Below, piece after piece: positions 33,158 through 63,195 of a stretch of DNA of 64,000 bases. The DNA is taken from positions 248,001 to 312,000 of the forward strand of contig JANSYQ010000002.1 in the NCBI GenBank assembly GCA_024742305.1. The letters are read 5' to 3'. Below the pieces are notes generated by a model that had not been told where the DNA came from, made no database searches, and worked only from the letters and a program-made list of their open reading frames with translations. Source of the stretch: a bacterium (lineage in GTDB: Bacteria > Bacteroidota > Bacteroidia > Flavobacteriales_D > Crocinitomicaceae). Position 1 is the first letter of the stretch, and the number at the start of each line of letters is the position of its first letter. Both the position numbers and the translations under genes were made by a program.

Positions 33158-33234
33158 GCTTCTTTAGCTCAGTTGGTTAGAGCATCTGACTGTTAATCAG
33201 AGGGTCCCTGGTTCGAGCCCAGGAAGGAGCGCCA
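33158..33234 (+). tRNA. tRNA-Asn (GTT)
   Basis: The cloverleaf folds by eye: acceptor GCTTCTT with AAGGAGC (one T-G pair), D-arm GCTC...GAGC, anticodon stem TCTGA/TCAGA with loop CTGTTAA (anticodon GTT), T-arm CCTGG/CCAGG with TTCGAGC loop, discriminator G, then an encoded CCA at 33232-33234. The accessory island starts directly behind it. Confidence 0.97.
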
Positions 33235-37164: not shown

Positions 37165-37203
37165 AGTTAAAGTCAATTATAACATGTAGATTGATATTTC
37201 TGC

Positions 37204-37230
37204 GACCCCGTCATGATGAATTAGGTGGTC
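37204..37230. repeat. 27-bp imperfect palindrome, right copy flanking the Gabija-type genes
   Basis: Begins GACCCCGTCATGATG and ends AGGTGGTC; related to the copy at 33776-33802 in the same orientation. It lies 39 bp upstream of the gajA start, so it could also act as an operator. Confidence 0.55.
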
Positions 37231-37244
37231 ATATTCTATTGATA

Positions 37245-38594: not shown

Positions 38595-38625
38595 GGTCGA
38601 TCGTATCTTATATCAGTGAATGGTG

Positions 38626-38640
38626 TGATTTGCAATCACC
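38626..38640. promoter_or_regulatory. 15-bp palindrome upstream of the DUF4041 gene
   Basis: GTGATT-TGC-AATCAC is a perfect inverted repeat 32 bp before the start, a plausible operator. Confidence 0.4.
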
Positions 38641-38751
38641 TAAAATACACAATGCACAACTATCTCACAATACTTGATTGATTTTATCTGAACATATAAC
38701 TTGACATCAATCAACTTCTATGAATAATGAAGAATGCCCACCAGACTTGAT

Positions 38752-38773
38752 AAAAGACACCAAATATGGTGTC
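38752..38773 (-). terminator. Terminator of the RuvC-like gene
   Basis: GACACC and GGTGTC (38756-38773) pair around a 6-nt loop, with TTTT next on the minus strand, 6 bp after the stop. Confidence 0.65.
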
Positions 38774-38778
38774 CCTAA

Positions 38779-39282
38779 TCAATCGTATTGTGAAAAGTGG
38801 GTTATTACCATCGAGAGTGCATCAAATTCGCACCAAGCTGGAGTTTCTGATCCATCGAAACTGGATCGCTCCCGTGGTCGTCGTGATGCATAGTACGGAA
38901 ATTGCTTGATGATAACATCGGCAATCCCTGGCTTGTTTAACCCAAAGAAGGAACCTGATATTACTTTTCGTGAGTAATGTTGAATGGGATATCCCAATTC
39001 ATTAATCAATTCCTCAATCTGGAAAAACAGTTTCTTCATTCGCTCTCCCCTGCTCTGGTTCCGACTAAAGGCTGGTTCTAAAAGAACCAACTTCGGATCA
39101 AAGCGTTGAATCAAGTTCTTCACATACTCTAGGTATGCATCTGGATTCTTGGGAGAAAGGTAACGGTAATTACTACTTTTTACATGGGTGGGGGTATCCA
39201 TCGCTGCATAGCCAAGTGCTCGGTAGTGCGGATATATCGCTAAAACAGTGGACCTTTGGTTTGCTGTTTTAGTTTTTCCCAT
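38779..39282 (-). CDS. RuvC-like (RNase H fold) protein with altered active site
   Basis: This 167-residue protein has the RuvC layout. The first strand, STVLAIYPHYRALGYAAMD (11-29), parallels the LGIDPGxRxTGYG motif of Holliday junction resolvases; a second strand, KLVLLEPAF, carries a glutamate; the C-terminal helix EFDALSMVITH resembles xADALAxAxTH. The first catalytic Asp is replaced by Tyr (Y17), so metal-dependent cleavage may be lost or rearranged. The gene starts 14 nt inside the XRE regulator gene upstream. It probably has a recombination or replication role in the mobile element; this assignment rests on motifs seen by eye. Confidence 0.55.
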   Translation of the reverse strand: MGKTKTANQRSTVLAIYPHYRALGYAAMDTPTHVKSSNYRYLSPKNPDAYLEYVKNLIQRFDPKLVLLEPAFSRNQSRGERMKKLFFQIEELINELGYPIQHYSRKVISGSFFGLNKPGIADVIIKQFPYYASRRPRERSSFDGSETPAWCEFDALSMVITHFSQYD

Positions 39283-39592
39283 CTTCCGTAAATTGACTTA
39301 GGAAATGGATACGTTCTGCGAGGTCTACGCCATTGCTTTGATACGTTATTTCATCAATGCGGGCCTCGGCGTATCCTTCCAAAAACAATCGAAATTCTTC
39401 TATCTCGCGTTTGAGAAGTACTTCGAGTGGTTCAGCGAACAATACGTGATAACACACAACCATTTCAAGACTTGGATAGCGCTTTCCATTCTCGACACGG
39501 GAGAGTGTTCCCCAGGACTTTTGCTTCAAAAGCATGCGAACGTCATCCAGCGTGAGTGGAGATCGTTTGCGTGCCTTTTTCAATACATGCAT
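39269..39592 (-). CDS. XRE-family helix-turn-helix regulator
   Basis: This 107-residue protein has a Cro/C1-type HTH at about residues 12-62 (LTLDDVRMLLKQKSWGTLSRVENGKRYPSLEMVVCYHVLF) with the SxxxxGxxxPS turn characteristic of the family, and a helical tail. It overlaps the start of the RuvC-like gene by 14 nt, so the two are co-translated and probably co-regulated. Confidence 0.82.
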   Translation of the reverse strand: MHVLKKARKRSPLTLDDVRMLLKQKSWGTLSRVENGKRYPSLEMVVCYHVLFAEPLEVLLKREIEEFRLFLEGYAEARIDEITYQSNGVDLAERIHFLSQFTEDGKN

Positions 39593-39816
39593 AAAGTTCT
39601 TTTCTATTTAATTCGAATAATTCTGTACCTGCCTAGACAGGACATTTCTATCCTAACCTCTTTCGCAGTTTCAAGCATGGCGATACCTTCGTGCCTCCTG
39701 AGCACGGCGCCTACTTTCGTGCGCTAGGGCTTTGGACACCCTACGCACAGAACCGCCCTTGTGCGCGCTAACGCGACGCCCAAGCGGCGAACCTGCACGC
39801 AGTGCGCCAAAGACTC
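39593..39816. other. GC-rich intergenic patch
   Basis: Between about 39,660 and 39,840 the base composition becomes clearly GC-rich within an AT-rich island. It contains a copy of the CATGGCGA...CGTG...GAGCACGG element (39676-39707), related to 40363-40407, and several GTGCGC words. No coding frame is credible. Confidence 0.5.
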
Positions 39817-40365
39817 CTAGCTGCAACGAAAGCAGGAACAAGAAAGACCTTGCCTACGTTTGAGGATACACTCCACACGTTCTGTATCAGTTTGTTTTTT
39901 GAATTTGGAAGATATTTTCTGTGTCTCTTGTTGTCTATCTTTATATATAGTTATCGGCACATTATGCATTGGAGTGTTGTCTAATTGTGCTGATATAATC
40001 TCTGCTTTTGCCTTGGTGAAGTCGGTTGGTTCATAGTGAATATCACTGCGGTATTTTCTGTGTTTGGGTGATAACTCTTTTCCAGTTGGATCGGTGATTT
40101 TAATAAAGTCTCGTGATGAAAGAGACTCAACCGCTTTGGTTATTGAGCGCGGCGAGAGGCCGGTTTTTTTCTGGAATTGGCTATGGGATATTCTATCGCG
40201 TTGTTTGTTCCATCCTATGGTTTGACGAATAATGGTGAGTAATAGCTTAAGTTCTGCTTCTGAGAGCTTCGGGAGCCAGGTATCGAGGAGGATATCTGAC
40301 ACTTTGGTAAATCCTTGATCATTCATAACGAAAGGAAGTGTATCGAAGTTCGATGGAGGGGTCAT
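39817..40365 (-). CDS. Replication-initiation-like winged-helix protein (phage RepO-like)
   Basis: The ATG at 40365 gives 182 residues; ATG 40326 is an alternative and GTG 40392 is unlikely. The N-terminal half resembles the DNA-binding domain of phage replication protein O: FTKVSDILLDTWLPKLSEAELKLLL, then IGWNKQRDRISHSQFQKKTGLSPRSITKAVESLSSRDFIKI. In this family it binds the origin of the element. The C-terminal half is charged and ends in a Cys-rich tail encoded by the GC-rich patch. The start region lies inside a 45-bp palindromic element. Confidence 0.7.
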   Translation of the reverse strand: MTPPSNFDTLPFVMNDQGFTKVSDILLDTWLPKLSEAELKLLLTIIRQTIGWNKQRDRISHSQFQKKTGLSPRSITKAVESLSSRDFIKITDPTGKELSPKHRKYRSDIHYEPTDFTKAKAEIISAQLDNTPMHNVPITIYKDRQQETQKISSKFKKQTDTERVECILKRRQGLSCSCFRCS

Positions 40366-40407
40366 GGCGACAGTTTCGTGACCCCTGAGCACGGAAGTGT
40401 TGCCATG
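40363..40407. repeat. 45-bp symmetrical palindromic element
   Basis: CATGGC (40363-40368) pairs with GCCATG (40402-40407), and CGTG (40377-40380) with CACG (40390-40393), exactly symmetrical about 40385. A half-conserved copy lies at 39676-39707, and a copy of the right arm in reverse orientation at 49547-49570. Confidence 0.6.
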
Positions 40408-40441
40408 ATTTAATTTTTGGTTGTGTTAACTTCAAATTCGT

Positions 40442-40597
40442 ATGGCACAACGATCTTTTGAATTAAATCAAAAGGACATTGAGGAATTCAAGGTTCTTTA
40501 TGAGAAATACTACACTGTGGAGCTAAATAATTCTCAAGCTAAGATGCTTGCTCAGCACCTTATAGCTTTTATGGCATTCATTACGTATAAGCAATAG
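40442..40597 (+). CDS. Small protein upstream of serine recombinase (51 aa)
   Basis: A short frame begins MAQRSFELNQKDIEEFKVLY and ends AFITYKQ. It resembles the small proteins of about 50 residues (pattern LxxxDIExFKxLYxxxxxVEL) often found beside site-specific recombinase genes in several bacterial lineages. Function unknown. It is on the same strand as the recombinase, 126 bp upstream, with a terminator-like hairpin between them. Confidence 0.6.
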   Translation: MAQRSFELNQKDIEEFKVLYEKYYTVELNNSQAKMLAQHLIAFMAFITYKQ

Positions 40598-40665
40598 TTT
40601 TCAATCTCCTTTGATTCGTGTTATAACAAAAAGGCATGATCATTATTTAGAAGTCTAAGTTAAAG

Positions 40666-40712
40666 AGGAGGGACGAACGGTAATCATGCATTATCTTTCG
40701 CCCCTCCTTTTT
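40666..40712 (+). terminator. Terminator/attenuator just before the recombinase gene
   Basis: AGGAGGG-A-CGAA pairs with TTCG-C-CCCTCCT (one A-C mismatch) around a 19-nt loop, followed by TTTT. It ends 11 bp before the recombinase ATG. It may terminate the small gene or attenuate recombinase expression. Confidence 0.65.
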
Positions 40713-40723
40713 GATTTACAACT

Positions 40724-42328
40724 ATGATTAAATACTTTGTTTATGCAAGAAAAAGTCGAGACAAAGCTGAAGAACAAGTAATGTCAATTAACGGGCAGCT
40801 AGACGCAATCAATAACTTGGCTAGAAAAAATGGCTTTGTGATTGCACAGATATTCAAAGAAGAAAAAAGTGCAAAAAAACCGGGTCGACCAATTTTCAAT
40901 GAAATGATGGAACGAATTCGAGCCGGAGAAGCCAACGGAATAATATGCTGGAAATTAAATAGACTTGCCAGAAATCCTGTTGATGGAGGTGCAATATCTT
41001 GGGCTCTTCAAACCAATATCATACAAGCTATCCACAGTGTAGAAAGAACATATCTACCTACGGATAATGTACTGATGATGCAAATTGATTTCGGAATCGC
41101 AACTCAATTTATCAAGGATCTATCAAGTGATACCAAAAGAGGGCTCAGAGACAAAGCAAAGCTTGGGTGGAATCCGAAGGCTTCACTACCAATGGGATAT
41201 TTACACAACCCTAAGAAGCAGCTTGCAGATGAACAAATTATCTGCGATCCCGAACGATATTCTATAATTAAGGAGTTATGGAAGCGGATGGAAACAGGCG
41301 CCTATTCAGTTCTTGATATTCGTCGAATGGCAAGGGTTCTCGGCCTTGTCAATAAAAAAGGGAAAGAATACTCTCTTAATGCTTTCTACTTGATGTTCAG
41401 AAACCCAATGTATTATGGTAAATTCTACTGGAAAGACGAAAATGGAAATAGTGTTCTTTGGGAGGGAAAACATAAAAAGATGATTGATGAAGTCACCTTT
41501 CACAAGGTACAACAACTGATTTGCGACAGGAATCAAAACAAGGGGGCAAAGAGCTACTTTTTTCCATATCGTGGACTCATTTCCTGTGGCGAGTGCGGAG
41601 GGCATGTTACTGCCGAAAGAAAGATTCAGGCTATTTGTACGAAGTGCTCACATAAGTACTCCATTAGACGAAATGAGGTATGTCCGAAATGTAACACCTC
41701 ATTATCTTCAATGAATAATCCGAGTATCATAGACATAACCTATTACCGTTGTATGAAGAACCGCAACCAGAATTGCACTCAAAAAACCATAAACGCGAAT
41801 AGCATCAATCAAACTATACAATCACTACTTGAGAACATCTCAATTCCTAGGAAGCTGCATGATTGGCTTATGCAACGCACCGATGCTTATTACAACTCTC
41901 GTACAACGGATCAGAGTCTATTGATTAACTCTTTGAAAAAAAAGCTGGCTAGGGAGAAACAAAAATTGGAGAATCTAATCGAGCTTCGCGTCTCGGGAGA
42001 AATAAACAAGGAAGAAGCCGAAACACTAAAACTAAAATATAACCTAGAAATAAAAGCTGTCGAAGAAGAGATATTTCAGAAAGAAAAAGCTCAGTCAATT
42101 GAGAAACGCAATGCTGAGATATACTTGAAATTTGCTAAAAACTGTGTTGAAAGATTCAAGAATGGTGACGACCATGAAAAAAAAGCAATTACCGCATTTT
42201 TCATTTCGAACCTAACCTTATTGGATAAAACCCTTTATTTTTCAACAAAAAAAGCACCGGAAGTACTTTCTTTGATGCAGAAAACCTTACTCTCTGAAAT
42301 AAGCGTTTCGAACCTAAAATCTTGTTGA
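40724..42328 (+). CDS. Large serine recombinase
   Basis: This 534-residue protein has the N-terminal resolvase catalytic domain: YARKSRDKAEEQ with nucleophile S11, INGQLDAINNLA, and IICWKLNRLARNPVDGG. The Recombinase domain follows (about 160-275, GYLHNPKK, MFRNPMYYGKFYW), then a zinc-ribbon (CGECGG, CTKC, CPKC, YYRC) and a C-terminal coiled coil (about 410-470), all as in phage-type large serine integrases. It catalyses integration or excision between att sites. The att sites cannot be identified here; large serine integrases seldom use tRNA genes, so the tRNA-Asn boundary may have another cause. Confidence 0.93.
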   Translation: MIKYFVYARKSRDKAEEQVMSINGQLDAINNLARKNGFVIAQIFKEEKSAKKPGRPIFNEMMERIRAGEANGIICWKLNRLARNPVDGGAISWALQTNIIQAIHSVERTYLPTDNVLMMQIDFGIATQFIKDLSSDTKRGLRDKAKLGWNPKASLPMGYLHNPKKQLADEQIICDPERYSIIKELWKRMETGAYSVLDIRRMARVLGLVNKKGKEYSLNAFYLMFRNPMYYGKFYWKDENGNSVLWEGKHKKMIDEVTFHKVQQLICDRNQNKGAKSYFFPYRGLISCGECGGHVTAERKIQAICTKCSHKYSIRRNEVCPKCNTSLSSMNNPSIIDITYYRCMKNRNQNCTQKTINANSINQTIQSLLENISIPRKLHDWLMQRTDAYYNSRTTDQSLLINSLKKKLAREKQKLENLIELRVSGEINKEEAETLKLKYNLEIKAVEEEIFQKEKAQSIEKRNAEIYLKFAKNCVERFKNGDDHEKKAITAFFISNLTLLDKTLYFSTKKAPEVLSLMQKTLLSEISVSNLKSC

Positions 42329-42526: not shown

Positions 42527-43726
42527 TTACATAAACTCAATTTTCTTACCGGTACTCGGATGGAACATTGTAATCTCACCATCGCTACTTACTTTAACGG
42601 GAAACGCATCATGTCTTCTTGCCGATAATGCTGCTGTCGTCCTAGCACCAGCGGCTGATAAACCGTCTGCCGTCCTAATCATTGAGCCGAACCCATAAAC
42701 CCGATTGTCTCCAAATATGATTGCCCCGTCCATACTGGACATCTCAAGGAACTTTCGCTTATAAATTCTTTGAGTGTTTTCTAAGTCGAATCTAAAATCA
42801 TTAAAGGACTCACCTATCCCCTTCCTGATCTCATCTGCATGTTCACTACCGATTATTGACTCTTGATTCGAAACATTTTCAGTAAAACTTGCATTATTGG
42901 TAAAAACCAGCAGTGCACCGTGTCGTTTATAGCTCAAATCAAAAAGTATTTCATAAAGATTACAGCCGATCCGATAGCTTTTATGGCTGAACGACCCTAA
43001 CAGTCCCGTAAGCATGTTCTTTAGGTGAGAAGGATCATATAAATACCAATTACCTTTTCTATATGATGCTCTTAAACCTGATGAATCACAAATAATTAAG
43101 TCTCCTCGGGTCGTTCTATGAAAAGACCAGTGCCAATCCTTAGTTAGCTTATACTGCTGGTATGAATGTAAGAATTCCGGATAAAACTTGTAACGATATG
43201 ATTCTCCTATGTCATCTACTCTCACATACTCATAACCGATAAATTCAACCTTACCATTTACTACAAAAAACACGCTTTGATCCTTCCCTAGTGGATCGAT
43301 AAGTTTGTGAAATGAACTGTCAGTCACATCAAAAGAAGCTGGTGTTCCATCTTCCAAATTGAACAACAGGTTAATCGCAATGGAATCATTCTCATAGGTA
43401 CGTCCATGCATTTCGTCATTGAATTCAATAAGCTTTTTCCAGTCAATTTTCTCCTCAATATTTGTCAACCATTGAATAGCCACTGCTTCTTGGATAATCC
43501 TCTTTGCCGTACTGTTTGAAAAACTCGATGTTGTTTCAATTAATCCCTTTAGTTCTGCGGATGCAAAGTCTCTAATTGACTCGAGTTCTGGCGTTGGTCT
43601 ATATGCTTTTATATAAGTCGTGGTTTCCCCGCATGTAACAAAGTTCGTTGTTACCTCACTTCCATAGTCGAACCAGTTCGGAATCATATTAAGAAAGGTT
43701 TCGATTGCCTCTTTTTCGCTTATCAT
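42527..43726 (-). CDS. DAC (DisA_N-like) domain protein, probably a sensor
   Basis: The 399-residue protein ends in a segment that follows the diadenylate-cyclase fold: MDGAIIFGDNRVYGFGSMI with the DGA motif (D333-A335), and GARTTAALSARRHDAFPV (360-377) where active enzymes have G-T-R-H-R-A-A-L. The RHR motif is therefore RTT (R362-T364), so nucleotide synthesis is unlikely and nucleotide sensing more so, as proposed for DACN-type sensor domains of conflict systems. The N-terminal 300 residues are not recognised. It is divergent from the HerA/VirD4-like ATPase gene with a 132-bp shared upstream region. Confidence 0.65.
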   Translation of the reverse strand: MISEKEAIETFLNMIPNWFDYGSEVTTNFVTCGETTTYIKAYRPTPELESIRDFASAELKGLIETTSSFSNSTAKRIIQEAVAIQWLTNIEEKIDWKKLIEFNDEMHGRTYENDSIAINLLFNLEDGTPASFDVTDSSFHKLIDPLGKDQSVFFVVNGKVEFIGYEYVRVDDIGESYRYKFYPEFLHSYQQYKLTKDWHWSFHRTTRGDLIICDSSGLRASYRKGNWYLYDPSHLKNMLTGLLGSFSHKSYRIGCNLYEILFDLSYKRHGALLVFTNNASFTENVSNQESIIGSEHADEIRKGIGESFNDFRFDLENTQRIYKRKFLEMSSMDGAIIFGDNRVYGFGSMIRTADGLSAAGARTTAALSARRHDAFPVKVSSDGEITMFHPSTGKKIEFM

Positions 43727-43858
43727 TTACTTTACGAATAGTGATTTTTACAATTGCTAAAAGTATCAAAATTTCATTTTCAATAACGTTGGAAACTGCC
43801 ATCGAATAATTAATGTCTCCTTGCAATTTACCTCATAACGAGCAAACATGTCATCGTT

Positions 43859-45061
43859 ATGAGAACCGATGCAAATAACAAAATATACTTTGCTAAAACC
43901 CTCGAATCTCACGGAGGCAAACTCTTCGCTCAGCACCAAAAAGACAAAATATACCACTCCCTCATTACAGGAGCCACCGGAACCGGAAAGTCAAATCTTC
44001 TCAAAACCATGATTCTTGGGGAAATCGAAAACAACGCGGGGTCAGTTATTGTTTTTGATCCGAATGGGGATCTTGTCCATGACATCATTGGAGACTGCTC
44101 ACCAAAACGAAGAAAAGATATTATCCTTATTGATCCTTCAAGACCCAATCATCAATATGGTTACAATCCACTCAAAAAAGTACCTGATGAACACAAACAT
44201 AGAGTGGTGTCTGAAGTCATGGAAATATTTTCGCGATTATACCCACAAAACGGCGCACGTGCTGATCATATTCTTAGACATTGCCTCTATCTCCTACTCG
44301 AGCAAAATCATGCGTCTCTGGCGGATATTCCAAAACTTCTTGTTGATGACGAGTTTCGCTACCAATGTCGCCTTCGCACAAACAACGAGACTATTCAGAA
44401 TTTCTGGCTTAAGGAGTTTCCTAAATATCGATCAGATGCCATTTTACCGATTCTTTCTCAACTTGGGTTTCTTCTCAATCATCCTGCAATCAGAAGCACC
44501 GTAATAGAGCCAAAATACGACCTTCACCTTCGGCATGTCATTGATAATAAGAAGATCATTCTTATTGCTATTTCCAAAGGAAAACTTGGAAGTGATGTAA
44601 GTGCATTTATCGGTTCAATTCTTCTTACCTCACTCACCATTGCAGTGTACGGTCGAGCTAATATGCCAGAATGGAAACGACCCTACAGTTCCCTTTACAT
44701 TGACGAGTTCCAAAACTTCAATATTTCTTCAATTATTGGTGCTTTTGCAGAGGTGCGTAAATATGGTCTCGCTATGACCGTAGCGACACAGAGACTCTCT
44801 TCCTTAAAACCAGAAATTGCAGCGGCAACTATTGGTAACGTGGGAAGCTTATTCACCTTCCGAGTTTCTTATGATGAAGCCAGAGTATTAGCAAAATATA
44901 TGATGCCACGTATTACCGCAGAAGACATTGTTTCACTTCCAAATTACCACATAGCACTATCAATGATGATCAATGGAACTGTTTCGATACCTTTTATTGC
45001 TATGACAGCAACTCCAAAAGAATTGTTTAATCGCAAGTCTATGGATATCCCATCTCCTTAA
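43859..45061 (+). CDS. HerA/VirD4-like P-loop ATPase
   Basis: This 400-residue protein has Walker A TGATGTGKSN (residues 37-46), Walker B SLYIDEFQNF (D282/E283) and the C-terminal segments of TraD/TraG-type coupling proteins (VATQRLSSLKPEIAAATIGNVGSLFTFR, DIVSLPNYHIAL). There is no membrane segment, unlike true coupling proteins, so it is a soluble HerA/FtsK-superfamily DNA-pumping ATPase. It may mobilise the element or act with the divergent DAC-like sensor. Its 3' end overlaps the convergent PLD gene by 23 bp. Confidence 0.8.
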   Translation: MRTDANNKIYFAKTLESHGGKLFAQHQKDKIYHSLITGATGTGKSNLLKTMILGEIENNAGSVIVFDPNGDLVHDIIGDCSPKRRKDIILIDPSRPNHQYGYNPLKKVPDEHKHRVVSEVMEIFSRLYPQNGARADHILRHCLYLLLEQNHASLADIPKLLVDDEFRYQCRLRTNNETIQNFWLKEFPKYRSDAILPILSQLGFLLNHPAIRSTVIEPKYDLHLRHVIDNKKIILIAISKGKLGSDVSAFIGSILLTSLTIAVYGRANMPEWKRPYSSLYIDEFQNFNISSIIGAFAEVRKYGLAMTVATQRLSSLKPEIAAATIGNVGSLFTFRVSYDEARVLAKYMMPRITAEDIVSLPNYHIALSMMINGTVSIPFIAMTATPKELFNRKSMDIPSP

Positions 45062-51675: not shown

Positions 51676-52479
51676 ATGCCCAAACAGCACCCTCCCATTT
51701 CAGGAGGAATACTTGAAGGAATTGCTAAAATTCTTGCCCATACAGATTATGGACTAACTGGAACAGAACTTTCAAAATTTATTTCTGAAGCGAGACTGAT
51801 AGATACTGATCCCTCGATGACAAAATGGAAAAGGCTCTACAATTCATTTGTTGAGTTCCAAAACAGAAAGGGGGTTTCAAATAACATCTATACCTTCATA
51901 ATGATCACGATGAACCCAGGAAGGTTCATTGGAAAAAATGATGAATACGAGCATCTTCGTAATGAGCTGAACAAGAGATTATCACTGATTGGAATAGAAC
52001 TCAAAACCAATGGGAAACTCTCAAAAGTCAAATCTGCAAAGACCATATCCGAAGCTGAACAAAGAGTTAACCGTTTCAAAGAAAAGCTGAAACAAAGAAA
52101 CGCACATGAAAAGATTTTTGAATTCTGTAATGAGCAACTGGTTACTGAAAACTACTTTCATAGTGTTTTTGAGGCAACAAAGAGCATCGCGGAAACCATA
52201 CGTTCCAAAACCATGTTAACTACTGATGGGACAAGTCTCATTGACACAGCATTCTCGATTTCCAGTCCTTTAATTCAAATTAATGATCTTTCAACTGAAA
52301 CGAAACAAAGTGAACATAAAGGGTTTGCAAATTTGATTCGAGGTGTATTTGGCATGTTCAGAAATACTACTGCTCACGCTCCGAGCATTGTGTGGCCAAT
52401 CTCGGAAGAAGATGCATTAGATATTCTAAGCACGATCTCCTTGATACACCGAAAGCTCGAACTTTCGGAGAACTTCTAA
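51676..52479 (+). CDS. TIGR02391 (Ymh-type) protein with HEPN-like C-terminal domain
   Basis: The 267-residue protein has an N-terminal helical domain (GGILEGIAKILAHTDYGLTGTELSKFI) and the TIGR02391 C-terminal domain: VFEATKSIAETIRSKT, DGTSLIDTAFS, then GVFGMFRNTTAHAP. The R229-x4-H234 motif is the active-site signature of HEPN ribonucleases. In other defence loci such proteins act as toxic RNases or their sensors. It is followed after 10 bp by the AAA ATPase gene and belongs to the same operon. Its presence is an addition to the basic Septu layout. Confidence 0.75.
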   Translation: MPKQHPPISGGILEGIAKILAHTDYGLTGTELSKFISEARLIDTDPSMTKWKRLYNSFVEFQNRKGVSNNIYTFIMITMNPGRFIGKNDEYEHLRNELNKRLSLIGIELKTNGKLSKVKSAKTISEAEQRVNRFKEKLKQRNAHEKIFEFCNEQLVTENYFHSVFEATKSIAETIRSKTMLTTDGTSLIDTAFSISSPLIQINDLSTETKQSEHKGFANLIRGVFGMFRNTTAHAPSIVWPISEEDALDILSTISLIHRKLELSENF

Positions 52480-52489
52480 TAGAAAAGTC

Positions 52490-54508
52490 ATGACAAGAGA
52501 AAATCAAAAAGCCATATTTGAATTCCTTTCTGAACAAAATGATGCATTTATAGCTATTGATCAGGATGACGATGATGGATATATTCCATTCATTTCAATG
52601 ATATGGGATATCGACAACATGCCCTCAACCGACATTAGATACAAGTCGGAAAGTATGAGGGATGATATAATTCGACACACGATTCATGCGCCCGATTGGG
52701 ACCTTGAAGAATTGTTCATCAATAAGCTCAAACTGTATGAAGACGAAAGCAAATTCCTCAGGTTTGTTGAATTATCATTAGCACCAAAATTTTGCCAATA
52801 TGCCAAAGATTCAGAATTCAGGATGGGTGCTATCAACCCCTATTTAGAGGGTGATGGATTAACACTTCAGCCAAAAAGAGAAGTTGATTCTGAACTTGAT
52901 CCGTACAACTATGATTCAAGAACGATATATAAAATAATTGATTTTGACCTCATTCAACATCTTCCTAATGGAGTTGAATTAAACACCATCCCCATCCATG
53001 TAAATTCTCCTGGAAGTGGTGCTCAATACTCCAATACAGTTGCTGTGCCAGAAAAATTACCAGCGCTCGTTCTTAATCATTGGGATCGATGGAATGATTC
53101 AGGATGGCTTACAATTTTTTATCTTTTTTACTGTACCGATGATGGAATCGAAAATATTGGAAAGATAAAAATCATGGAATCAGACTCGCATAATATCATG
53201 ACTGTTATTCCAAATTCATTCTTTGAATTAAACGACTCCTATTGTTCGCTGGGTCAATCTGATGACTTCTATTATGATCTACGAGATAGATTTCCTGATG
53301 AGTATTTAAATATTCTTTACGCGTTGCGTGATGCAGCCTTTTTCCCAAAAATTCATGAAGATTTTGAAAAAAACTCAGGATTCAATAATTCTCTACTCAG
53401 AAGCAGTCAAGCTGGCAGAGTGCTCCGGCTTATTCGACACAAAATTGAAGGACGAGATATCGATAACCTCTATGACTTCCACTACGAATACAAACCACCG
53501 TACTCTAGGCAACCTGTCGATATTCACTTCGGCTTCAAAACTCCTCAAAATAGTACCGATCGAATATTCGCTCTCATTGGAGAAAATGGCGTAGGTAAAA
53601 CGCAACTTATGTCTCAACTTCCGATAAGTATTGCCGAAGGCAAATCCCAGTTTTTTTCACCACAAATCCCTTTGTTCAGTAAGATCATTGCCGTCTCTTA
53701 TAGTGCCTTTGACGAATTTAAAATCCCAAAGAAGAATGTACATTTTAACTATCATCATTGTGGTTTGAGGAAAGAGGATGGAAAACCTTACACAAAAAGG
53801 GGACTGACAATGCGATTTAATAAAAGTTGCTTACGAATATCATATTTGGAAAGAATGCAAACATGGCGGAGAATTTTATCAAATTTCATAGAAAACAGTA
53901 TACTGGATCTGTTCATATTGCCATGGAATCGCAATATGACGGAAGAGTTATATCCAGGCCAATTCTTATCAAGAAAAAATGGTTTTGTATACCATAACGA
54001 TGGCTTTTCCGAGGCACGCCAAAAAATGAGCTCAGGTCAAAACATCTTACTCTACATTATAACCGAAATTGTAGCTAACATTCGATTTGACTCACTTATT
54101 CTCTATGACGAGCCGGAAACTCATCTTCATCCTAACGCAATTAGCCGTTTAGTTAACGCTATTTATGAACTCGTACAAGATTTTGAGTCTTATTGTCTAA
54201 TTGCGACCCACTCCCCAATGGTTATTCGTGAACTTTCCTCAAAAAACGTATTTGTAATGGAAAGGAATGAGCGAAACCTATCAGTTCGTAGAATTGGAAT
54301 TGAATCATTTGGTGAAAATATTTCAGTTTTGACCGATGTAGTGTTTGGTAATGGCTCCATTACCAAACAGTTTTCGACAATTATCAATGAACTCATTGAA
54401 TCAGGAAAAAGCTACGATGAAATTGTGGAAGAATTCGACTCTGGAAGACCGCTCAGTTTAAACACTCGCCTTCATATTCAATCACTATTAAACCAGAATA
54501 ATGCGTAA
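52490..54508 (+). CDS. AAA/ABC-type ATPase, PtuA-like
   Basis: This 672-residue protein has an extended N-terminus: about 85-130 reads like an AbiJ-NTD3-type module (FVELSLAPKFCQYAKDSEFR, INPYLEGDGLTLQP). The ATPase core has Walker A GENGVGKT (364-371), a signature-like MSSGQN (about 514) and Walker B LYDEPETHLHP (D540/E541) with H-loop IATHSP. It overlaps the HNH gene by 8 nt. An SMC/OLD-like ATPase plus an HNH nuclease is the Septu pair (PtuA-PtuB); the ATPase here is longer than usual PtuA (about 450-550). The assignment is by architecture, not alignment. Confidence 0.75.
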   Translation: MTRENQKAIFEFLSEQNDAFIAIDQDDDDGYIPFISMIWDIDNMPSTDIRYKSESMRDDIIRHTIHAPDWDLEELFINKLKLYEDESKFLRFVELSLAPKFCQYAKDSEFRMGAINPYLEGDGLTLQPKREVDSELDPYNYDSRTIYKIIDFDLIQHLPNGVELNTIPIHVNSPGSGAQYSNTVAVPEKLPALVLNHWDRWNDSGWLTIFYLFYCTDDGIENIGKIKIMESDSHNIMTVIPNSFFELNDSYCSLGQSDDFYYDLRDRFPDEYLNILYALRDAAFFPKIHEDFEKNSGFNNSLLRSSQAGRVLRLIRHKIEGRDIDNLYDFHYEYKPPYSRQPVDIHFGFKTPQNSTDRIFALIGENGVGKTQLMSQLPISIAEGKSQFFSPQIPLFSKIIAVSYSAFDEFKIPKKNVHFNYHHCGLRKEDGKPYTKRGLTMRFNKSCLRISYLERMQTWRRILSNFIENSILDLFILPWNRNMTEELYPGQFLSRKNGFVYHNDGFSEARQKMSSGQNILLYIITEIVANIRFDSLILYDEPETHLHPNAISRLVNAIYELVQDFESYCLIATHSPMVIRELSSKNVFVMERNERNLSVRRIGIESFGENISVLTDVVFGNGSITKQFSTIINELIESGKSYDEIVEEFDSGRPLSLNTRLHIQSLLNQNNA

Positions 54509-55370
54509 TCTTCCACACTTTTATGATGAATCGTTTTCATTCTTTCATGACGTAGTGAAAAGCAAACATAAAAAACGAGATGACCCTGGTTTTCTTGATA
54601 GACTGGAAACCTACTACGAGGATATTGATATATTATTTGAAGAGTACAATAAGCTCTTCAAAGAGAACAAACTTCATACGGTCATTGCAAGCACTGTTGA
54701 AGACCAGCAAAAGTCCGATCTACTAGACCTTTATCACTATGATAATAAAAGGATTCAAGCGCTTAAGACCCTTGTTACCACCATAGATGATAACCGCGCA
54801 TTGAATACATGCCAGAATTGCACCGTACGAATAGTTGAAAGCATGGATCATCAAGTGCCAAAAAATGACTTTCCAGAATTTTCTGTTCATCCATTAAACC
54901 TATTCCCAAGCTGCGAAAAATGTAACAAAAAGAAAGGTAAATATTGGAGGACAGAAACAGGACGGCTCTTTCTAAATCTTTATTTAGACCCACTACCAGA
55001 AGCTCAATATTTATTCTGTAATGTCAGCGTTGAAGATGAAAAGGTAGAAGCTCATTTCGAATTAAGGAACAACGAATGTATTTCAACAGAACTTTTTCAG
55101 CTTTTAAAAAGTCATTACGACCGCTTAGAACTTTGCAGTCTATTTTCGTTAAGTTGCGGCACAGTTATATCAAGAATGGCAACCTACATTAAGAATCATA
55201 GTGATATGCTTAGTATTGAACAAATGCAGTCAATTACATTAAAATCAAATCAAGATGAAAAAAACATATATGGCCAAAACCATTGGGAATTCATCCTGCA
55301 AGATACGTTAATTACGAGCGAGGATTTTATCAATTTTGCCCTTACAAATCATATTCAAGTGGCGGATTGA
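54501..55370 (+). CDS. HNH endonuclease, PtuB-like
   Basis: The 289-residue protein has a zinc-bound HNH core: C104-x2-C107, then D116-H117 in MDHQVP, the LNLFPSCEKCNKKKG segment with C138-x2-C141 and N142. The N-terminal 100 and C-terminal 130 residues are helical and not recognised. It starts inside the ATPase gene (8-nt overlap). In Septu the HNH protein cleaves DNA or tRNA when released from its ATPase. Confidence 0.82.
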   Translation: MRNLPHFYDESFSFFHDVVKSKHKKRDDPGFLDRLETYYEDIDILFEEYNKLFKENKLHTVIASTVEDQQKSDLLDLYHYDNKRIQALKTLVTTIDDNRALNTCQNCTVRIVESMDHQVPKNDFPEFSVHPLNLFPSCEKCNKKKGKYWRTETGRLFLNLYLDPLPEAQYLFCNVSVEDEKVEAHFELRNNECISTELFQLLKSHYDRLELCSLFSLSCGTVISRMATYIKNHSDMLSIEQMQSITLKSNQDEKNIYGQNHWEFILQDTLITSEDFINFALTNHIQVAD

Positions 55371-57681: not shown

Positions 57682-60600
57682 ATGAGTTATCTCCAACGCA
57701 GTATTGATGCTTTAAGCAAGAGATACCATCTAACCACAGAACACAATACTGATCATATCTATCGCACCGATGCACAAACGAACGAGGAAAACCTACTTTA
57801 TGGTGTTTCAAATATTCTTGGAAGACTCATATATGAGGCAACGCTTCCATCTCTACCTACAGAACAAGACTTACACTGGAGTGCCAAGGAGTTCAATATA
57901 AAAAATAACTCAAATGTTGACCCGTATGATATTGTTGAACGTGGATGGCTGCGAATAATTAATGGCCAAGTAAGAATCTCGATGTCTCTCATGAGAGCCA
58001 TTTTTGACCTACGCAACAATCGTATAGAAGTTCCAGATGCATTCATTAACGATATGAAATTCCTCGATACTTTTGATGCTGCCAGGCCTAGACACGATCA
58101 TCCTCTCGTCTCACATCAGTCCCTCACATTTCTCTCAAAGGATCAAATTGATTTCCTTAAAAGAAAAGAATGTATCGTCGAACTTAGAACAGGACAAAAG
58201 TACAGAGTTAGCGCTCAGAACTTCGGTCATTTCCTTCAGAATGAAATTTGTGCCGTTCTTTGGTCACACTTGTATAACGATAGTAATCTGAATGGAAAGG
58301 ATAAAATCTCAGAGTTCATTCGTCGAACGGAGGTCTTCAATATCAGCATACCTCATAATATCGGTGAATATCTTAACCTCAATAAGCAAAAAGCCCTCCG
58401 CGATAGTGCCTTCGAGGTCTTGATGAATGAAGAAGATGTGAAGTACTCAAACAGTGAATTTTATAAAGTTTGGTTCGATTCCCCTATGTACACTAGGAGA
58501 GGTGAAATTTTTAATCCTGTTCCAAAGAATTTCATTGATTATAGTAGCAGCTATGCGTTTTTGCTAAGTATAGGACGTTACGATTCAAATTATCCTGATC
58601 TCTACGAAAGTGAGGATACTCGCCTCTTACACGATTTATTACTTGAACTTATTATCCAGCTGGATGATCCAACACAAAACTATCCTGCCTTCCGGCAAGT
58701 CATTCAAGATATTACCCGACCTTACCTTGTGTACCGAACTTTTCAAAGGCTGAAGCGAAGGTGGAAGTATCTGATCCCATATACTTTGCTCGATCCTAGC
58801 TCGATCGAAATTGGTCTTCTCGCAACACATCATATGGAAATCAATAGGAACCTGCGCATCGAAGATCAAATGGCTCAAGATCAAATGACTGAAGATATAC
58901 AAACTCAGTCTGATTTATGGCTCAAGCTTTACGAGTTATTCTTGGATACCGTCACTGAAGAAAGCCCAATTACTGATGAGTCTGTACATTCATTGTATGC
59001 AATTCTCAGATATCAAAGTATGGTTCACTATTGGCCGCAAGCAAGATTAAGTCTAAAACAACAAACGGAGCGCGGCAGGAGATTAGAGGAAGGGTTCAAA
59101 CTATTAACAAGATTACGTCATACTCACTCAGCTTTACCTTGGTATGCTTTCATTCTTGACCGCCTTTTGACTCATCTTACATCAGAATCTTTCCCTGCTA
59201 CCGTCGGAACATTCACGCTGCTTGATCTCTCGCGTTTAGAGTTTGCCCTACAACTCCGTATGATTGCATCTAGAATTCCGATTATTGAGAAGTCTGTACC
59301 GTTTAACGTCTCAGAATTCTTCTCCGAAATAGACAAACTACTCCAAGAAATAGTAACACCATTTTTCACAGAAAAAACGTACAAGCACATTGACCGTATT
59401 ACAGGCGAATCAAGTACAAAAAACCTAACTCGCTACCATCACAGGTATGGTGAGGAGATTATCGATTGGGGACCTTACTGGATATTTCTGGATGAGTCTG
59501 GCTTGTACAACTCATTTATATCTAAAGCGTTATCGAGTATCCAGGTTGACGATTCAGAAAAAGGCCAGTTCAGTGATGTGAATCAGGAGTCTTTGAAGAA
59601 GATTCGGTTTCTTCTTAAGGCGATAGGGATTGGTATTGTTCAAATCGATAGATACACCTCAAAAATGAACATACTCTCGCGTAATACCATTCAAACAAGG
59701 GGAAAATTAATGGGCAAGCTAAAAGAGCTCACAACAATTCATATAAAATTAGATCTTAAGAAGTGTAGATTAAACGCTTTTACAGAAAAGAACTTTGGAA
59801 GTTTTCCAGTACTCTTTGAGGAAACACCTTCACAAGTTGTTTTCTCCGCTTTGGCGAGCCTCGGAGATGAAGATAAATCTGTGTTTCTATCAACTCTTTT
59901 AAAAGAAGAGATAGATTTATTACTGCTCCTGGAAATTCTCAATACCATGAATGATCCACAATCTAAAAATATTATTTCTGAGGTAATATCTTCGATTGAT
60001 GTGGAGCAATATCTCAAGTCAACAAGCAATTTTACTACGTGGAAAAACACCTTAATTGAAGCCATTCGATCTGATAAAAGTTTCGATTTCGTAGAGACCA
60101 TTCTAGAACGTATTGAAGAGCATCTAGAGCGAGTACCAATGCTCAAAAATCGCGAAACTGAGCATCTCTTTGAACTTAAACTCGCCTTGGCCACAAAAAA
60201 TAAAGACTTGGAGACGCTCAAAACGGTTCAAATGCATAAAGCAAATCAAGCTGTCACATTTAACCGAATGCCTCCAGATGAAATACGACGTCAATTCTAT
60301 ATGGGTATTCATTATGTGTATAACGCCAAACAACCTCATAAAGCGATAGAAATTTTTGAAAAACTTCATTCCCTTGACCCAGATAACGTTGAATTTGCTT
60401 ACAGACTCTATCATGCAAGAACAATTGAGGCTTTAGAAAAAAACAACGCTGATCTCTTTCATTCAGCACGTACCTTTTGGGATGATTTTTTTAAAGACTC
60501 AAAAGATGAAAATGAATTAAAACGTTTGCAACTATTGATTCTTTTTACGCATACCTTTCACGCAAGTTTCTTTCTTGAAATTGAACAGGTTCGTTATAAC

Positions 60601-61458
60601 CTTTCAAAATTACATCCAGACATGAAGTACTACTCTGGATTAATTGAATCAGTCTACCTTTGCCTTTCGCGTAAAAGTACAGCAGAAGAATCTGGCTCAT
60701 ATTTATATCTCGCATCAACGTACTATGTGCGAAGTGGAGAACCCCAACCATCAATACTAACTCATCTATTAAGCATCCATGATGATTCGAAAGAATTAGC
60801 GTTGCTCAAGGATACCTTCTCTCGCATACGAGATTTATCGCCAGAAAAGATTATTCAAACCATTCCTGAAAGATTAAATGGAAACGCTTATAACCTTACC
60901 CACTTCATCTCAGAAGAAGTCGTTCGAGCCGGAAAACTTATGAACGAGAGAGTTGTTTCACTCAGTGCAATACAAAGAGAAAACAAGTACAACGATTTAA
61001 TACTCGCAATCCTTAAAATGAGGCTTGCCGTGTGGGGTTGGTCAATTCAAGACCAAGGGCGAGTTGGTATCAGTACAACGGGAGTAGAATTAGGTGAATC
61101 TGACTTTCTCGTAGCGTCAGGAGAACAGAATCTTTGCCTGATAGAAGCCATGACGCTCACCGGAAAAAATAAGCGGAAGACGAGAGAGCACGTTTTGAAG
61201 TGTTTTACGTACGTCAATCATCTTACTGAATTCATCATGCTCACCTACTTTCTTGGTAATGATTCAAAATTCAACGATACTTGGAAGAAGTACAAAACTG
61301 ATGTAGAGTCGATTTGTTACTCTTCTGAAACAGACATTATCGGTTCATTTGAAGATTTAACGGATACTCAACAAAGAACACGCTCTATACAACTCGGAAA
61401 AACGAAACACAAATCTACAATTACAATGCTCCATGTCTTTATCAATATCCCTCAGTAA
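57682..61458 (+). CDS. 1,258-aa helical-repeat protein with nuclease-like C-terminal core; possible novel defence component
   Basis: Most of the protein is alpha-helical with no P-loop. A TPR-like unit is visible at about 868-916 (RRQFYMGIHYVYNAKQPHKAIEIFEKLHSLDPDN). Near the C-terminus (about 1110-1200) a helix with NDLILAILKMRLAVWGW is followed by GISTTGVELGESDFLV and LCLIEAMTLTGKNKRKTREHV: the E1139/D1141/E1155 pattern resembles the PD-(D/E)xK core, although the final Lys is replaced (E-A-M). The stop is 18 bp before the PD-(D/E)xK gene, so the two form one unit. I do not recognise it as part of any named system. Confidence 0.7.
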   Translation: MSYLQRSIDALSKRYHLTTEHNTDHIYRTDAQTNEENLLYGVSNILGRLIYEATLPSLPTEQDLHWSAKEFNIKNNSNVDPYDIVERGWLRIINGQVRISMSLMRAIFDLRNNRIEVPDAFINDMKFLDTFDAARPRHDHPLVSHQSLTFLSKDQIDFLKRKECIVELRTGQKYRVSAQNFGHFLQNEICAVLWSHLYNDSNLNGKDKISEFIRRTEVFNISIPHNIGEYLNLNKQKALRDSAFEVLMNEEDVKYSNSEFYKVWFDSPMYTRRGEIFNPVPKNFIDYSSSYAFLLSIGRYDSNYPDLYESEDTRLLHDLLLELIIQLDDPTQNYPAFRQVIQDITRPYLVYRTFQRLKRRWKYLIPYTLLDPSSIEIGLLATHHMEINRNLRIEDQMAQDQMTEDIQTQSDLWLKLYELFLDTVTEESPITDESVHSLYAILRYQSMVHYWPQARLSLKQQTERGRRLEEGFKLLTRLRHTHSALPWYAFILDRLLTHLTSESFPATVGTFTLLDLSRLEFALQLRMIASRIPIIEKSVPFNVSEFFSEIDKLLQEIVTPFFTEKTYKHIDRITGESSTKNLTRYHHRYGEEIIDWGPYWIFLDESGLYNSFISKALSSIQVDDSEKGQFSDVNQESLKKIRFLLKAIGIGIVQIDRYTSKMNILSRNTIQTRGKLMGKLKELTTIHIKLDLKKCRLNAFTEKNFGSFPVLFEETPSQVVFSALASLGDEDKSVFLSTLLKEEIDLLLLLEILNTMNDPQSKNIISEVISSIDVEQYLKSTSNFTTWKNTLIEAIRSDKSFDFVETILERIEEHLERVPMLKNRETEHLFELKLALATKNKDLETLKTVQMHKANQAVTFNRMPPDEIRRQFYMGIHYVYNAKQPHKAIEIFEKLHSLDPDNVEFAYRLYHARTIEALEKNNADLFHSARTFWDDFFKDSKDENELKRLQLLILFTHTFHASFFLEIEQVRYNLSKLHPDMKYYSGLIESVYLCLSRKSTAEESGSYLYLASTYYVRSGEPQPSILTHLLSIHDDSKELALLKDTFSRIRDLSPEKIIQTIPERLNGNAYNLTHFISEEVVRAGKLMNERVVSLSAIQRENKYNDLILAILKMRLAVWGWSIQDQGRVGISTTGVELGESDFLVASGEQNLCLIEAMTLTGKNKRKTREHVLKCFTYVNHLTEFIMLTYFLGNDSKFNDTWKKYKTDVESICYSSETDIIGSFEDLTDTQQRTRSIQLGKTKHKSTITMLHVFINIPQ

Positions 61459-61476
61459 ATCTCATCCGTGTAACTC

Positions 61477-63195
61477 ATGATGTTTGCTTTAACTCCTACA
61501 TACGCAGATATTTTCGAAGATTCACCCGCTCGGTTTAACAACCTGATCGAAAATATACATATTGACCTTATTATCAAAGTTGTGAGTAACACAAATGCAC
61601 AATTATTTACTGCGCAATTCGAAGAACGAATCCAACGAAAGTTACTTGCTCAATGGATACATGATTTAGAGCCCATTGATCAACTAAAAATTGCTCAGGC
61701 ATTCAACCAATTCGTCCAAAGGAGAGGTAAGAGGTTTGGACTATTCTCCAGTCACTATTTATTAGCGTTCTTACATGCTTGCCTTGTACAACATGAGAGT
61801 GAATCCGATAGTGATCAGATAAAGTCACTAGAGCCTGAAGCAATCCTTGATCTTTTCAAAGCCTATCTCATCTTTACGGAGGAATTGAATGATCAAATTG
61901 AATTTCGAGACCTTTCAGTTGAGCACTTCTATGAGCGTACCTGGCCATTATTAATCAAACAAACAGAAATGAATAGGACAACCAACTACTTTTCTGTCAT
62001 GCTCAAATCTATGTGCTTTTTTGATTACTTCCAGTTTGAACTTGACAAGGAAGAATACGTAAATAACTTCATCCAGTTAAATGGATGTGAGGACGGAAAA
62101 AACTATGCATTTAGAAACATTAAACTTATACAAGACGGAACCAACACGGGAAACGAAAATAACTATCGCGAGTGTTTTTTTCGATCACAACAAGAGTTTC
62201 TTCCCATGTACGACAATATGTCGATTGACCTCACCACCTACCCTATAGAGTTTCAAAAATCAAAAAATCTCACTGGGATCAGGAAAACACCCTTGTATAA
62301 GGCTTCTGAAGATCAATATTGCGTAATTGATTGGAATCTTTTCTCAAGAAAAATATACGATGGTCTCATTTTTGATTTTTATCACAGATCTGGCATCAAG
62401 AATGAACAGATGAAAAATGATTTCGTAAATCACTATTTACCGCTTGTCTCAGAAATGATCGAAAAACACCTTTTCCGAAACTTAATCAGAAGCATTTTTG
62501 AGAGAACACCTTCGGCTCAAATCATTTTCGATGATGGCGAGGTAAACGGCGCTCCCGACGCGTATGTGAGAATTGGTAAAAGAATTTTCCTCTTTGAAAT
62601 CAAGGATTCATATTTTTCAGCAAACGCCATTGAATCTGGAGACTATAAAAGTCTCAAAAATGAAATTGATCGGAAATACAATAACTATAAGAAAGGAACA
62701 GGTCAAATCGTGAATCAATTGAAGTTCTTGAAGGAGAACTCGTACGAGGAGAAAACCTTTAGTCAGTTACAATTAAAACACCGTAATATCATGGTGTATC
62801 CTATAATACTCTATACCGACCCTACTTATCGACTACTCGGTTCAGAGTCATACCTCAATAAAGAATTCTGTGAAAAGTTGCAGAAAGAAAAGTTAGATAG
62901 TACCTACGGGCTCGTACGAAGACTATCCTTCATTAGTATTGATTTCTTCTTAGAGAACTTAATGCAGCTGAAAGAGCCTAAAAGTCGCTTAGACAAACTC
63001 GTTGATCACTATGAAAAAACAATCAAAGCAAGGCGTAAAAAATTTGCTCGAGAAGAGACAATGACGAGTCATTTTGCAATGTACGCTCACTTCGAAGATA
63101 TAGTTTTGGGTGATGAGCTCTTTGCAAAAGATGATGGATACATCAAACAAGTATTTAACGATCTAAATCTCATGAGAGGTTTTGCAATCTCTTGA
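61477..63195 (+). CDS. PD-(D/E)xK nuclease (572 aa), partner of the 1,258-aa protein
   Basis: The N-terminal 340 residues are helical and unrecognised. A nuclease core follows: IIFDDGEVNGAPDAYVRIG with D361, then IFLFEIKDS with E374 and K376, the complete PD-(D/E)xK signature of Mrr/REase-like enzymes. After it come QIVNQLKFL and IMVYPIILYTD, strands and helices in the expected order. It is therefore predicted to cut DNA or RNA. Two adjacent ATGs (61477, 61480) could start it. It is the second and last gene of the unit. Confidence 0.75.
   Translation: MMFALTPTYADIFEDSPARFNNLIENIHIDLIIKVVSNTNAQLFTAQFEERIQRKLLAQWIHDLEPIDQLKIAQAFNQFVQRRGKRFGLFSSHYLLAFLHACLVQHESESDSDQIKSLEPEAILDLFKAYLIFTEELNDQIEFRDLSVEHFYERTWPLLIKQTEMNRTTNYFSVMLKSMCFFDYFQFELDKEEYVNNFIQLNGCEDGKNYAFRNIKLIQDGTNTGNENNYRECFFRSQQEFLPMYDNMSIDLTTYPIEFQKSKNLTGIRKTPLYKASEDQYCVIDWNLFSRKIYDGLIFDFYHRSGIKNEQMKNDFVNHYLPLVSEMIEKHLFRNLIRSIFERTPSAQIIFDDGEVNGAPDAYVRIGKRIFLFEIKDSYFSANAIESGDYKSLKNEIDRKYNNYKKGTGQIVNQLKFLKENSYEEKTFSQLQLKHRNIMVYPIILYTDPTYRLLGSESYLNKEFCEKLQKEKLDSTYGLVRRLSFISIDFFLENLMQLKEPKSRLDKLVDHYEKTIKARRKKFAREETMTSHFAMYAHFEDIVLGDELFAKDDGYIKQVFNDLNLMRGFAIS

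What the first reader, a model, noticed from the sequence alone, without database searches (positions are those of the whole stretch)
57682..63195. Two-gene unit: 1,258-aa helical protein plus PD-(D/E)xK nuclease, candidate undescribed defence system
Seen: two genes 18 bp apart, isolated between backbone genes (DUF2958 and the 118-aa protein). The second has a full nuclease signature (D361, E374, K376). The first is a very large helical protein without a P-loop whose C-terminus has a related core (E1139, D1141, E1155) with the Lys missing. Known: defence systems often pair a large sensor scaffold with a nuclease. Inference: the large protein senses and the small one cuts, or a degenerate nuclease domain binds nucleic acid and recruits the active one. 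I know no named system with this layout.
Basis: partly seen in the sequence, partly recalled or inferred. Interest (0 to 1): 0.8.

Follow-up and report, generated by a model that had tools for sequence, protein, structure and literature searches.

The report
TPR nuclease beside Upx-like nuclease
Two neighbouring bacterial genes in a probable mobile DNA island each appear to encode a nucleic-acid-cutting defence protein; their relatives are usually found apart, and the larger belongs to an unnamed family whose cutting domain also ends several other kinds of sensor protein.

Summary
The two genes are real: 1,258 aa (P0001, 57682-61458) and 572 aa (P0002, 61477-63195), 18 bp apart. P0002 is a PD-(D/E)xK nuclease: D361, E374, K376 are invariant in 13 aligned sequences, and its AlphaFold model shows the core. 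Foldseek's first PDB row is the defence protein Upx (E 2.7e-3). P0001 is a helical, partly TPR-like protein ending in a PD-(D/E)xK-like domain. Its Lys is probably moved to the next helix, not missing: D1141, E1155, H1170, K1173 are invariant in 14 aligned sequences. That domain also ends an LRR-Roc-COR GTPase and other proteins.

The obligate pair fails. P0002 occurs in 13 of 395 genomes, own included; P0001 adjoins it in two, the window's and G057 (order swapped). Of nine P0001-family loci, two adjoin P0002; others adjoin AbiE, a Wadjet-like operon, unnamed genes or nothing close. Pfam, PADLOC and NCBIfam name neither protein. My reading: two separate defence nucleases, facultatively linked, in a tRNA-Asn island. 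No function was tested.

The parts
57682..61458 (+). P0001: 1,258-aa large helical protein of an unnamed family, with C-terminal PD-(D/E)xK-like domain
   Evidence: ORF; profile of the other family rows finds it at E 1.5e-82; no Pfam, PADLOC or NCBIfam family above cut-off
60268..60804 (+). TPR-like stretch of P0001 (about residues 863-1041)
60907..61455 (+). C-terminal PD-(D/E)xK-like domain of P0001 (residues 1076-1258); E1100, D1141, E1155, K1173
   Evidence: 14-sequence alignment with invariant Q, S, G, D, E, H, K, Y, Y, H; predicted helix-strand-strand-strand-helix-strand order at low confidence
61459..61476 (+). 18-bp gap between the two genes
   Evidence: sequence, measured
61477..63195 (+). 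P0002: 572-aa PD-(D/E)xK nuclease with a helical N-terminal half, Upx-like in fold
   Evidence: ORF; profile of the other family rows finds it at E 3.1e-65; AF2 pLDDT 76.4, pTM 0.78; fold matches
62404..62814 (+). nuclease core of P0002 (about residues 310-446): E329, D361, E374, K376, Q410
   Evidence: invariant columns in 13 aligned sequences; secondary structure of the model
33190..33232 (+). 3' part of tRNA-Asn, 43 bp repeated exactly 55,914 bp further on, outside the window: probable left attachment site of the island that carries the pair
   Evidence: tRNA; a 20-base piece occurs at exactly two places in the genome, up to 1 mismatch allowed; comparison of the two copies

Best explanation
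These are two separate defence-type nucleases that sit next to each other, not one obligate two-gene machine. P0001 is most likely self-contained: its long helical, partly TPR-like array senses an infection cue or holds the protein inactive, and its C-terminal PD-(D/E)xK-like domain then cuts nucleic acid with D1141, E1155 and a Lys that moved to the next helix (K1173). P0002 is a Upx-like PD-(D/E)xK nuclease with its own helical half, usually encoded without P0001. In this island the two are probably co-transcribed (18 bp apart) and may add to or regulate each other, but relatives of each persist without the other. Shown by computation: families, motifs, fold of P0002, neighbourhoods. Inferred: nuclease activity, sensing, defence role, co-transcription.
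Confidence: 0.55

Rival explanations
1. One reading: a dedicated two-gene defence system in which P0001 senses and P0002 cuts, P0001's own domain being dead and only recruiting.
For: 18-bp spacing in the window and 20 bp in G057 in the other order; a swapped order with kept adjacency can mark a true complex (general knowledge); P0001's motif III Lys is absent.
Against: 11 of 13 P0002 genomes in the 395-genome sample lack an adjacent P0001 relative, and 7 of 9 P0001-family loci lack P0002 (for L039 the contig ends 140 bp after the gene, so a downstream partner could not be seen). D, E, H, K of the domain stay invariant in loci without P0002.
Confidence: 0.2
2. P0001 is a rider or guard gene: it attaches to the end of different defence operons (P0002, AbiE, a Wadjet-like operon, others) and fires its nuclease when the primary system is hit or disabled.
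For: P0001 relatives start 3 bp after an AbiEii gene in L039 and, as a broken remnant, in L064; 4 bp inside a JetD-like gene after MukB/JetC-like and MksE genes in L063 (the JetD match is weak, PADLOC E 6.1e-5 and Pfam below cut-off); 20 bp after P0002 in L022; between a 443-aa and a 247-aa gene in L038. A HamB gene is followed by a 485-aa gene bearing the same C-terminal domain.
Against: Half of all ORFs counted in the fetched loci (139 of 279) have a same-strand neighbour within 25 bp, so 6 of 8 distinct loci with one is not striking; L052 and L054 have none; defence genes cluster anyway; the 443-, 247- and 599-aa neighbours have no family match above cut-off.
Confidence: 0.18
3. Neighbours by chance in a defence-rich mobile island, with unrelated triggers, and possibly one or both not defence at all (for example island maintenance or toxin-antitoxin-like). 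This overlaps the favoured reading, so the odds given do not add up to 1.
For: GC drop from about 0.44 to about 0.38 after the tRNA, 43-bp repeat and a tyrosine-recombinase-like gene next to the far repeat; families mostly apart; broken or deleted relatives of P0001 in G277, G851, G202 and G565 show that the gene is readily lost.
Against: Second adjacency in G057; company of known defence genes in several loci.
Confidence: 0.25

Closest known systems
Upx (PDB 9wuf; that it is a single-gene anti-phage protein is recalled)
   Different: P0002 is 572 aa and would match only the C-terminal half of Upx; no PADLOC model hits it at E up to 1; no PDB sequence match up to E 10
PD-(D/E)xK restriction and nicking nucleases (Nt.BspD6I, HindIII, FokI)
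   Same: core fold and catalytic residues of P0002
   Different: 13% identity or less to these three in the structural alignment; helical N-terminal half; its other neighbour has no Pfam match, so no methyltransferase is next to it
PD-(D/E)xK families in which the motif III Lys moved (as Lys or Arg) to the helix after strand 3: DUF506, DUF790, DUF1626 (PMC1913061, passages seen)
   Same: P0001 C-terminus: D and E on strands 2 and 3, Lys in the following helix
   Different: no Pfam relationship: the 14 members gave no Pfam family matched by more than one member at E up to 1; fused to a helical array
NLR-like and Roc-COR sensor proteins with C-terminal effectors
   Same: own-genome LRR-Roc-COR protein carries the same C-terminal domain
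   Different: P0001 has no P-loop NTPase
Septu, Wadjet, AbiE, Hachiman
   Same: genes like theirs neighbour P0001-family or C-terminal-domain genes
   Different: P0001 and P0002 match no PADLOC model at E up to 1

Membership tests
PD-(D/E)xK nuclease superfamily (P0002) | D...(D/E)xK catalytic residues conserved | tested here: met
   D361, E374, K376 invariant in 13 of 13 aligned sequences, P0002 included
[quoted passage not shown]
PD-(D/E)xK nuclease superfamily (P0001 C-terminus) | catalytic D and E of motifs II and III | tested here: met
   D1141 and E1155 invariant in 14 of 14 aligned sequences; that these columns are motifs II and III rests on a low-confidence model
PD-(D/E)xK nuclease superfamily (P0001 C-terminus) | Lys in motif III, ExK | tested here: not met
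   E1155-A-M in P0001, EAF in its seven aligned full relatives; invariant Lys instead at 1173 in the next helix, a variation described in PMC1913061
PD-(D/E)xK nuclease superfamily (P0001 C-terminus) | core fold | tested here: inconclusive
   strand and helix order fits, but model confidence is low and the rows of the fold search cover the helical part
Upx | sequence family of Upx | tested here: inconclusive
   no PADLOC family at E up to 1 (that the library holds a Upx model is recalled, not checked); no PDB sequence up to E 10
Upx | single large chain | tested here: not met
   P0002 is 572 aa; the chain of 9wuf has 1,212 residues, numbered to at least 1272
Dedicated two-gene system P0001+P0002 | homologues kept together | tested here: not met
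   adjacent in 2 of 13 P0002 genomes and 2 of 9 P0001-family loci
NLR-like / STAND sensor (Avs, bNACHT) | P-loop NTPase module | tested here: not met
   no P-loop pattern and no Pfam NTPase in P0001
Anti-phage defence system | protects cells from phage or plasmid | not testable with these tools
   needs a challenge experiment

The most novel reading that the evidence does not exclude
P0001 belongs to an unnamed family of mobile sensor-nucleases whose C-terminal nuclease domain (motif G[ES]xD...E...HxxK, Lys in the helix) is a portable effector shared by TPR-type proteins, LRR-Roc-COR GTPases and an extra gene of a Hachiman-like operon. The TPR-type members ride at the end of unrelated defence operons (AbiE, Wadjet-like, Upx-like nuclease) as a common backup that kills the cell when the primary defence is engaged or disabled.
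Probability: 0.17. Interest if true: 0.75.

Novelty: new variant of a known kind. Interest (0 to 1): 0.5.

Why it matters
The C-terminal domain is a candidate effector nuclease without a name in Pfam, PADLOC or, for P0001 itself, NCBIfam. Yet it ends several unrelated proteins, among them an LRR-Roc-COR GTPase, a sensor type for which one literature search showed no use of the term Roc-COR in the 12 papers listed of 41 found. If it cuts, annotators gain a new label and experimenters a motif (D1141, E1155, K1173) to mutate, and it becomes testable whether large helical proteins serve as shared backups for other defence systems.

Tried and rejected
Known-system match: Pfam, NCBIfam and PADLOC scans of both proteins gave nothing above cut-off (PHROGs was not scanned). 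Solved-structure sequence searches with both family profiles gave nothing, and with the C-terminal profile four chance-level rows (E 0.37-1).

Phage and plasmid links: no match in plasmids for P0001, its C-terminus or its relative L039; none in phages for L039, for the G057 P0002 or for the Salmonella-type relative; none of the latter in E. coli genomes in 'near' mode. Viral contigs gave no confirmed relative for the A1, A2 or G057-P0002 queries. P0002 matched 4 of 72,556 plasmid records, all Hymenobacter, 22-24% identity; three of the four regions were fetched, and none held a P0001 relative.

'Partner swapping' as a statistical claim: rejected, because half of the ORFs in these loci have a close same-strand neighbour. 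The PIN-like reading of the 247-aa L038 gene and the HEPN-like reading (RNAELH) of the 599-aa L023/L040 gene are mine by eye; Pfam, PADLOC and PDB sequence searches did not support them. G341 (E 9.9e-4 over 69 residues) was dropped from the family count as probably spurious. The place of P0001 itself in the family tree is unsure (long branch).

The rows shown for P0001's model (50 each) are mostly large helical-repeat proteins of unrelated function; VIA's rows cover about P0001 residues 698-1042, so the N-terminal part and the nuclease-like end were barely tested. Upx is not among the rows shown for P0001; that excludes nothing.

Literature: in the listings of searches (several capped) I saw no paper on this pair or family. 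Seen: listings and abstract starts only, except passages of PMC13092281 and PMC1913061. Absence from these listings is not absence from print.
Full report
What is there. The window's right end holds two genes on the + strand: P0001 (57682-61458, 1,258 aa) and P0002 (61477-63195, 572 aa), 18 bp apart. A DUF2958 gene lies upstream on the other strand and a 149-aa frame downstream on the other strand. Neither protein matches a Pfam, PADLOC or NCBIfam family above its cut-off.

Both belong to real families. P0001 finds a 1,348-aa relative in G057 (E 9.2e-39) and a similar one in G292 (2.1e-32); P0002 finds relatives in 12 other genomes of the 395 examined. Profiles of the other aligned rows, the window's row removed after alignment, recover P0001 at 1.5e-82 (residues 18-128, 149-424, 592-1256) and P0002 at 3.1e-65 (2-541). 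P0001 is a diverged member, 21-23% identical to the rest, and 85-96 residues shorter than the unbroken ones, mostly by lacking a stretch near residue 115.

Other carriers of the domain. It is rare: 5 of 395 phylum genomes match the domain profile, own included. In the own genome, contig 40, a 925-aa LRR-Roc-COR GTPase ends in it (E 5.0e-12; domains). A 514-aa protein in G339 and a 485-aa protein in G514 (E 5.6e-24) carry it; the latter follows a HamB-type helicase gene by 24 bp. Plasmid hits include GTP-binding or COR proteins of Spirosoma and Photobacterium, a 304-aa Vibrio protein 52 bp after an AAA ATPase gene, and 1,252-1,269-aa proteins of Burkholderia (83 bp after an OLD-family ATPase with TOPRIM), Salmonella (a HATPase gene 1.2 kb on) and Edwardsiella. 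The Salmonella and Burkholderia proteins are 33% identical over their length and form a clade apart from the P0001 family in a midpoint-drawn tree.

Do the two genes travel together? P0001-family loci with the whole gene, from all searches: window, G057 (L022), G292 (L023), UBA4411 (L040 = L053, G572), Flavobacterium sasangense (L038), NP5 (L039), G407 (L052), G565 (L054, split by a stop) and G996 (L063): nine, of which G292 and UBA4411 are nearly identical. Counts per search, remnants and domain-only matches included: 6 of 395, 2 of 100, 4 of 294, 5 of 395, own or centre genome among them. P0002 relatives adjoin two of the nine: the window (P0001 first) and G057 (P0002 first, 20 bp). Twelve genomes from these searches, scanned with the P0002 profile, gave two with a match: G057, and G277 elsewhere in that genome. 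L038-L040 had none within the loci, and L039's contig ends 140 bp after the gene. From the other side, 13 of 395 genomes have P0002; of the 12 besides the window's, only G057 has a P0001 relative beside it (whole genomes also scanned). In that sample 2 of 3 genomes with full-length P0001 also have P0002 (p 0.003), but the window itself prompted the test; without it the count is 1 of 2. So there is a hint of association, not a fixed pair.

Other neighbours of P0001 relatives. An AbiEi-AbiEii pair ends 3 bp before it in L039, and before a 128-aa remnant in L064. In L063 it starts 4 bp inside a JetD-like gene (weak match) that follows MukB/JetC-like and MksE genes, with a GajB-like gene further up. 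In L022 a Septu pair (PtuA, PtuB) and an HNH gene precede P0002 and P0001. L038 has a 443-aa gene 3 bp before and a 247-aa gene 7 bp after; L023 and L040 have a 599-aa gene 20 bp after, none with a family match above cut-off. L052 and L054 have no close neighbour. Since 139 of 279 ORFs counted in these loci have a same-strand neighbour within 25 bp, 6 of 8 distinct loci with one is suggestive only. Remnants in G277 (two ends, middle gone), G851 and G202 (N-termini) and the stop in G565 show frequent decay.

P0002 relatives in part sit in defence company: 5 of 10 neighbours scanned had a PADLOC match at E up to 0.001, among them an Argonaute-associated REase-type gene in L028 and a type I methyltransferase in L036; 5 had none.

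Setting. A 43-bp stretch at the 3' end of the tRNA-Asn (window 33190-33232) recurs 55,914 bp downstream, and its 20-base piece occurs nowhere else in the genome. A gene beside the far copy ends in a tyrosine-recombinase-like sequence (my reading of the translation), and GC falls from about 0.44 to about 0.38 past the tRNA. The pair thus lies in a probable integrated island of about 56 kb that also carries PD-Lambda-3_B-like, PtuA/PDC-M01A-like and PDC-M01B genes (51676-55370).

Mechanism I favour. Each protein carries its own helical part and its own nuclease: P0001 as helical/TPR-like sensor plus C-terminal nuclease, P0002 as Upx-like nuclease. Both would cut nucleic acid when a phage or plasmid cue appears. 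Steps shown: families, motifs, P0002 fold, neighbourhoods. Steps inferred: cutting, cue, defence, any cooperation. The rivals are a true pair (about 0.2), a rider or guard gene (about 0.18) and mere chance neighbours in an island (about 0.25); the last overlaps the favoured reading, so the odds do not add up to 1.

Novelty. The kind (helical sensor plus PD-(D/E)xK nuclease) is known; the P0001 family and its C-terminal domain are unnamed in the libraries scanned, and the domain's spread over TPR-type, Roc-COR and operon-extra-gene contexts is the interesting part. I call it a new variant of a known kind.

Noticed in passing
window 33190-33232 and G000:C54:337104-337146: 43-bp exact repeat of the tRNA-Asn 3' end bounds a probable 55.9-kb integrated island; a tyrosine-recombinase-like gene lies beside the far copy.
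   Followed up: partly
L056:4368-7145 (G000:C40): 925-aa LRR-Roc-COR GTPase of the same genome with the P0001-type C-terminal domain.
   Followed up: partly
L084:1718-4456 (Photobacterium toruni plasmid): COR-domain protein with this C-terminal domain lies between TniB/HTH and TniQ, Csy2, Csy3 genes, as if cargo inside a type I-F CRISPR-associated transposon.
   Followed up: no
L055:7101-12178: HamB helicase gene followed after 24 bp by a 485-aa gene with the C-terminal domain: a possible extra gene of a Hachiman-like operon; the 341-aa gene before HamB was not searched.
   Followed up: partly
window 51676-55370: PD-Lambda-3_B-like gene, PtuA/PDC-M01A-like ATPase gene and PDC-M01B gene in a row.
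   Followed up: no
window 42527-45061: A gene with a DAC (diadenylate cyclase-like) domain beside a T4CP/HerA-like ATPase gene on the other strand.
   Followed up: no
window 35341-42328: AAA_15 (OLD-like) ATPase gene and a DUF4041/T5orf172 gene after the tRNA; a serine recombinase gene at 40724-42328.
   Followed up: no
L022 and L038: Two loci with P0001 relatives (G057 and Flavobacterium sasangense) share downstream genes (83% and 94% identical), so the same chromosomal spot seems to hold different partner genes.
   Followed up: no
L024, L064, L065, L054: Broken or deleted copies of P0001 relatives in four genomes.
   Followed up: partly
L039: Contig labelled Rickettsiales MAG NP5 carries a P0001 relative whose nearest kin in the tree is from the window's own order (G407); possibly misbinned.
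   Followed up: no
L032, L033: P0002 relatives there are followed by a 339-347-aa gene whose frame overlaps the nuclease gene, 61% identical between the two.
   Followed up: no
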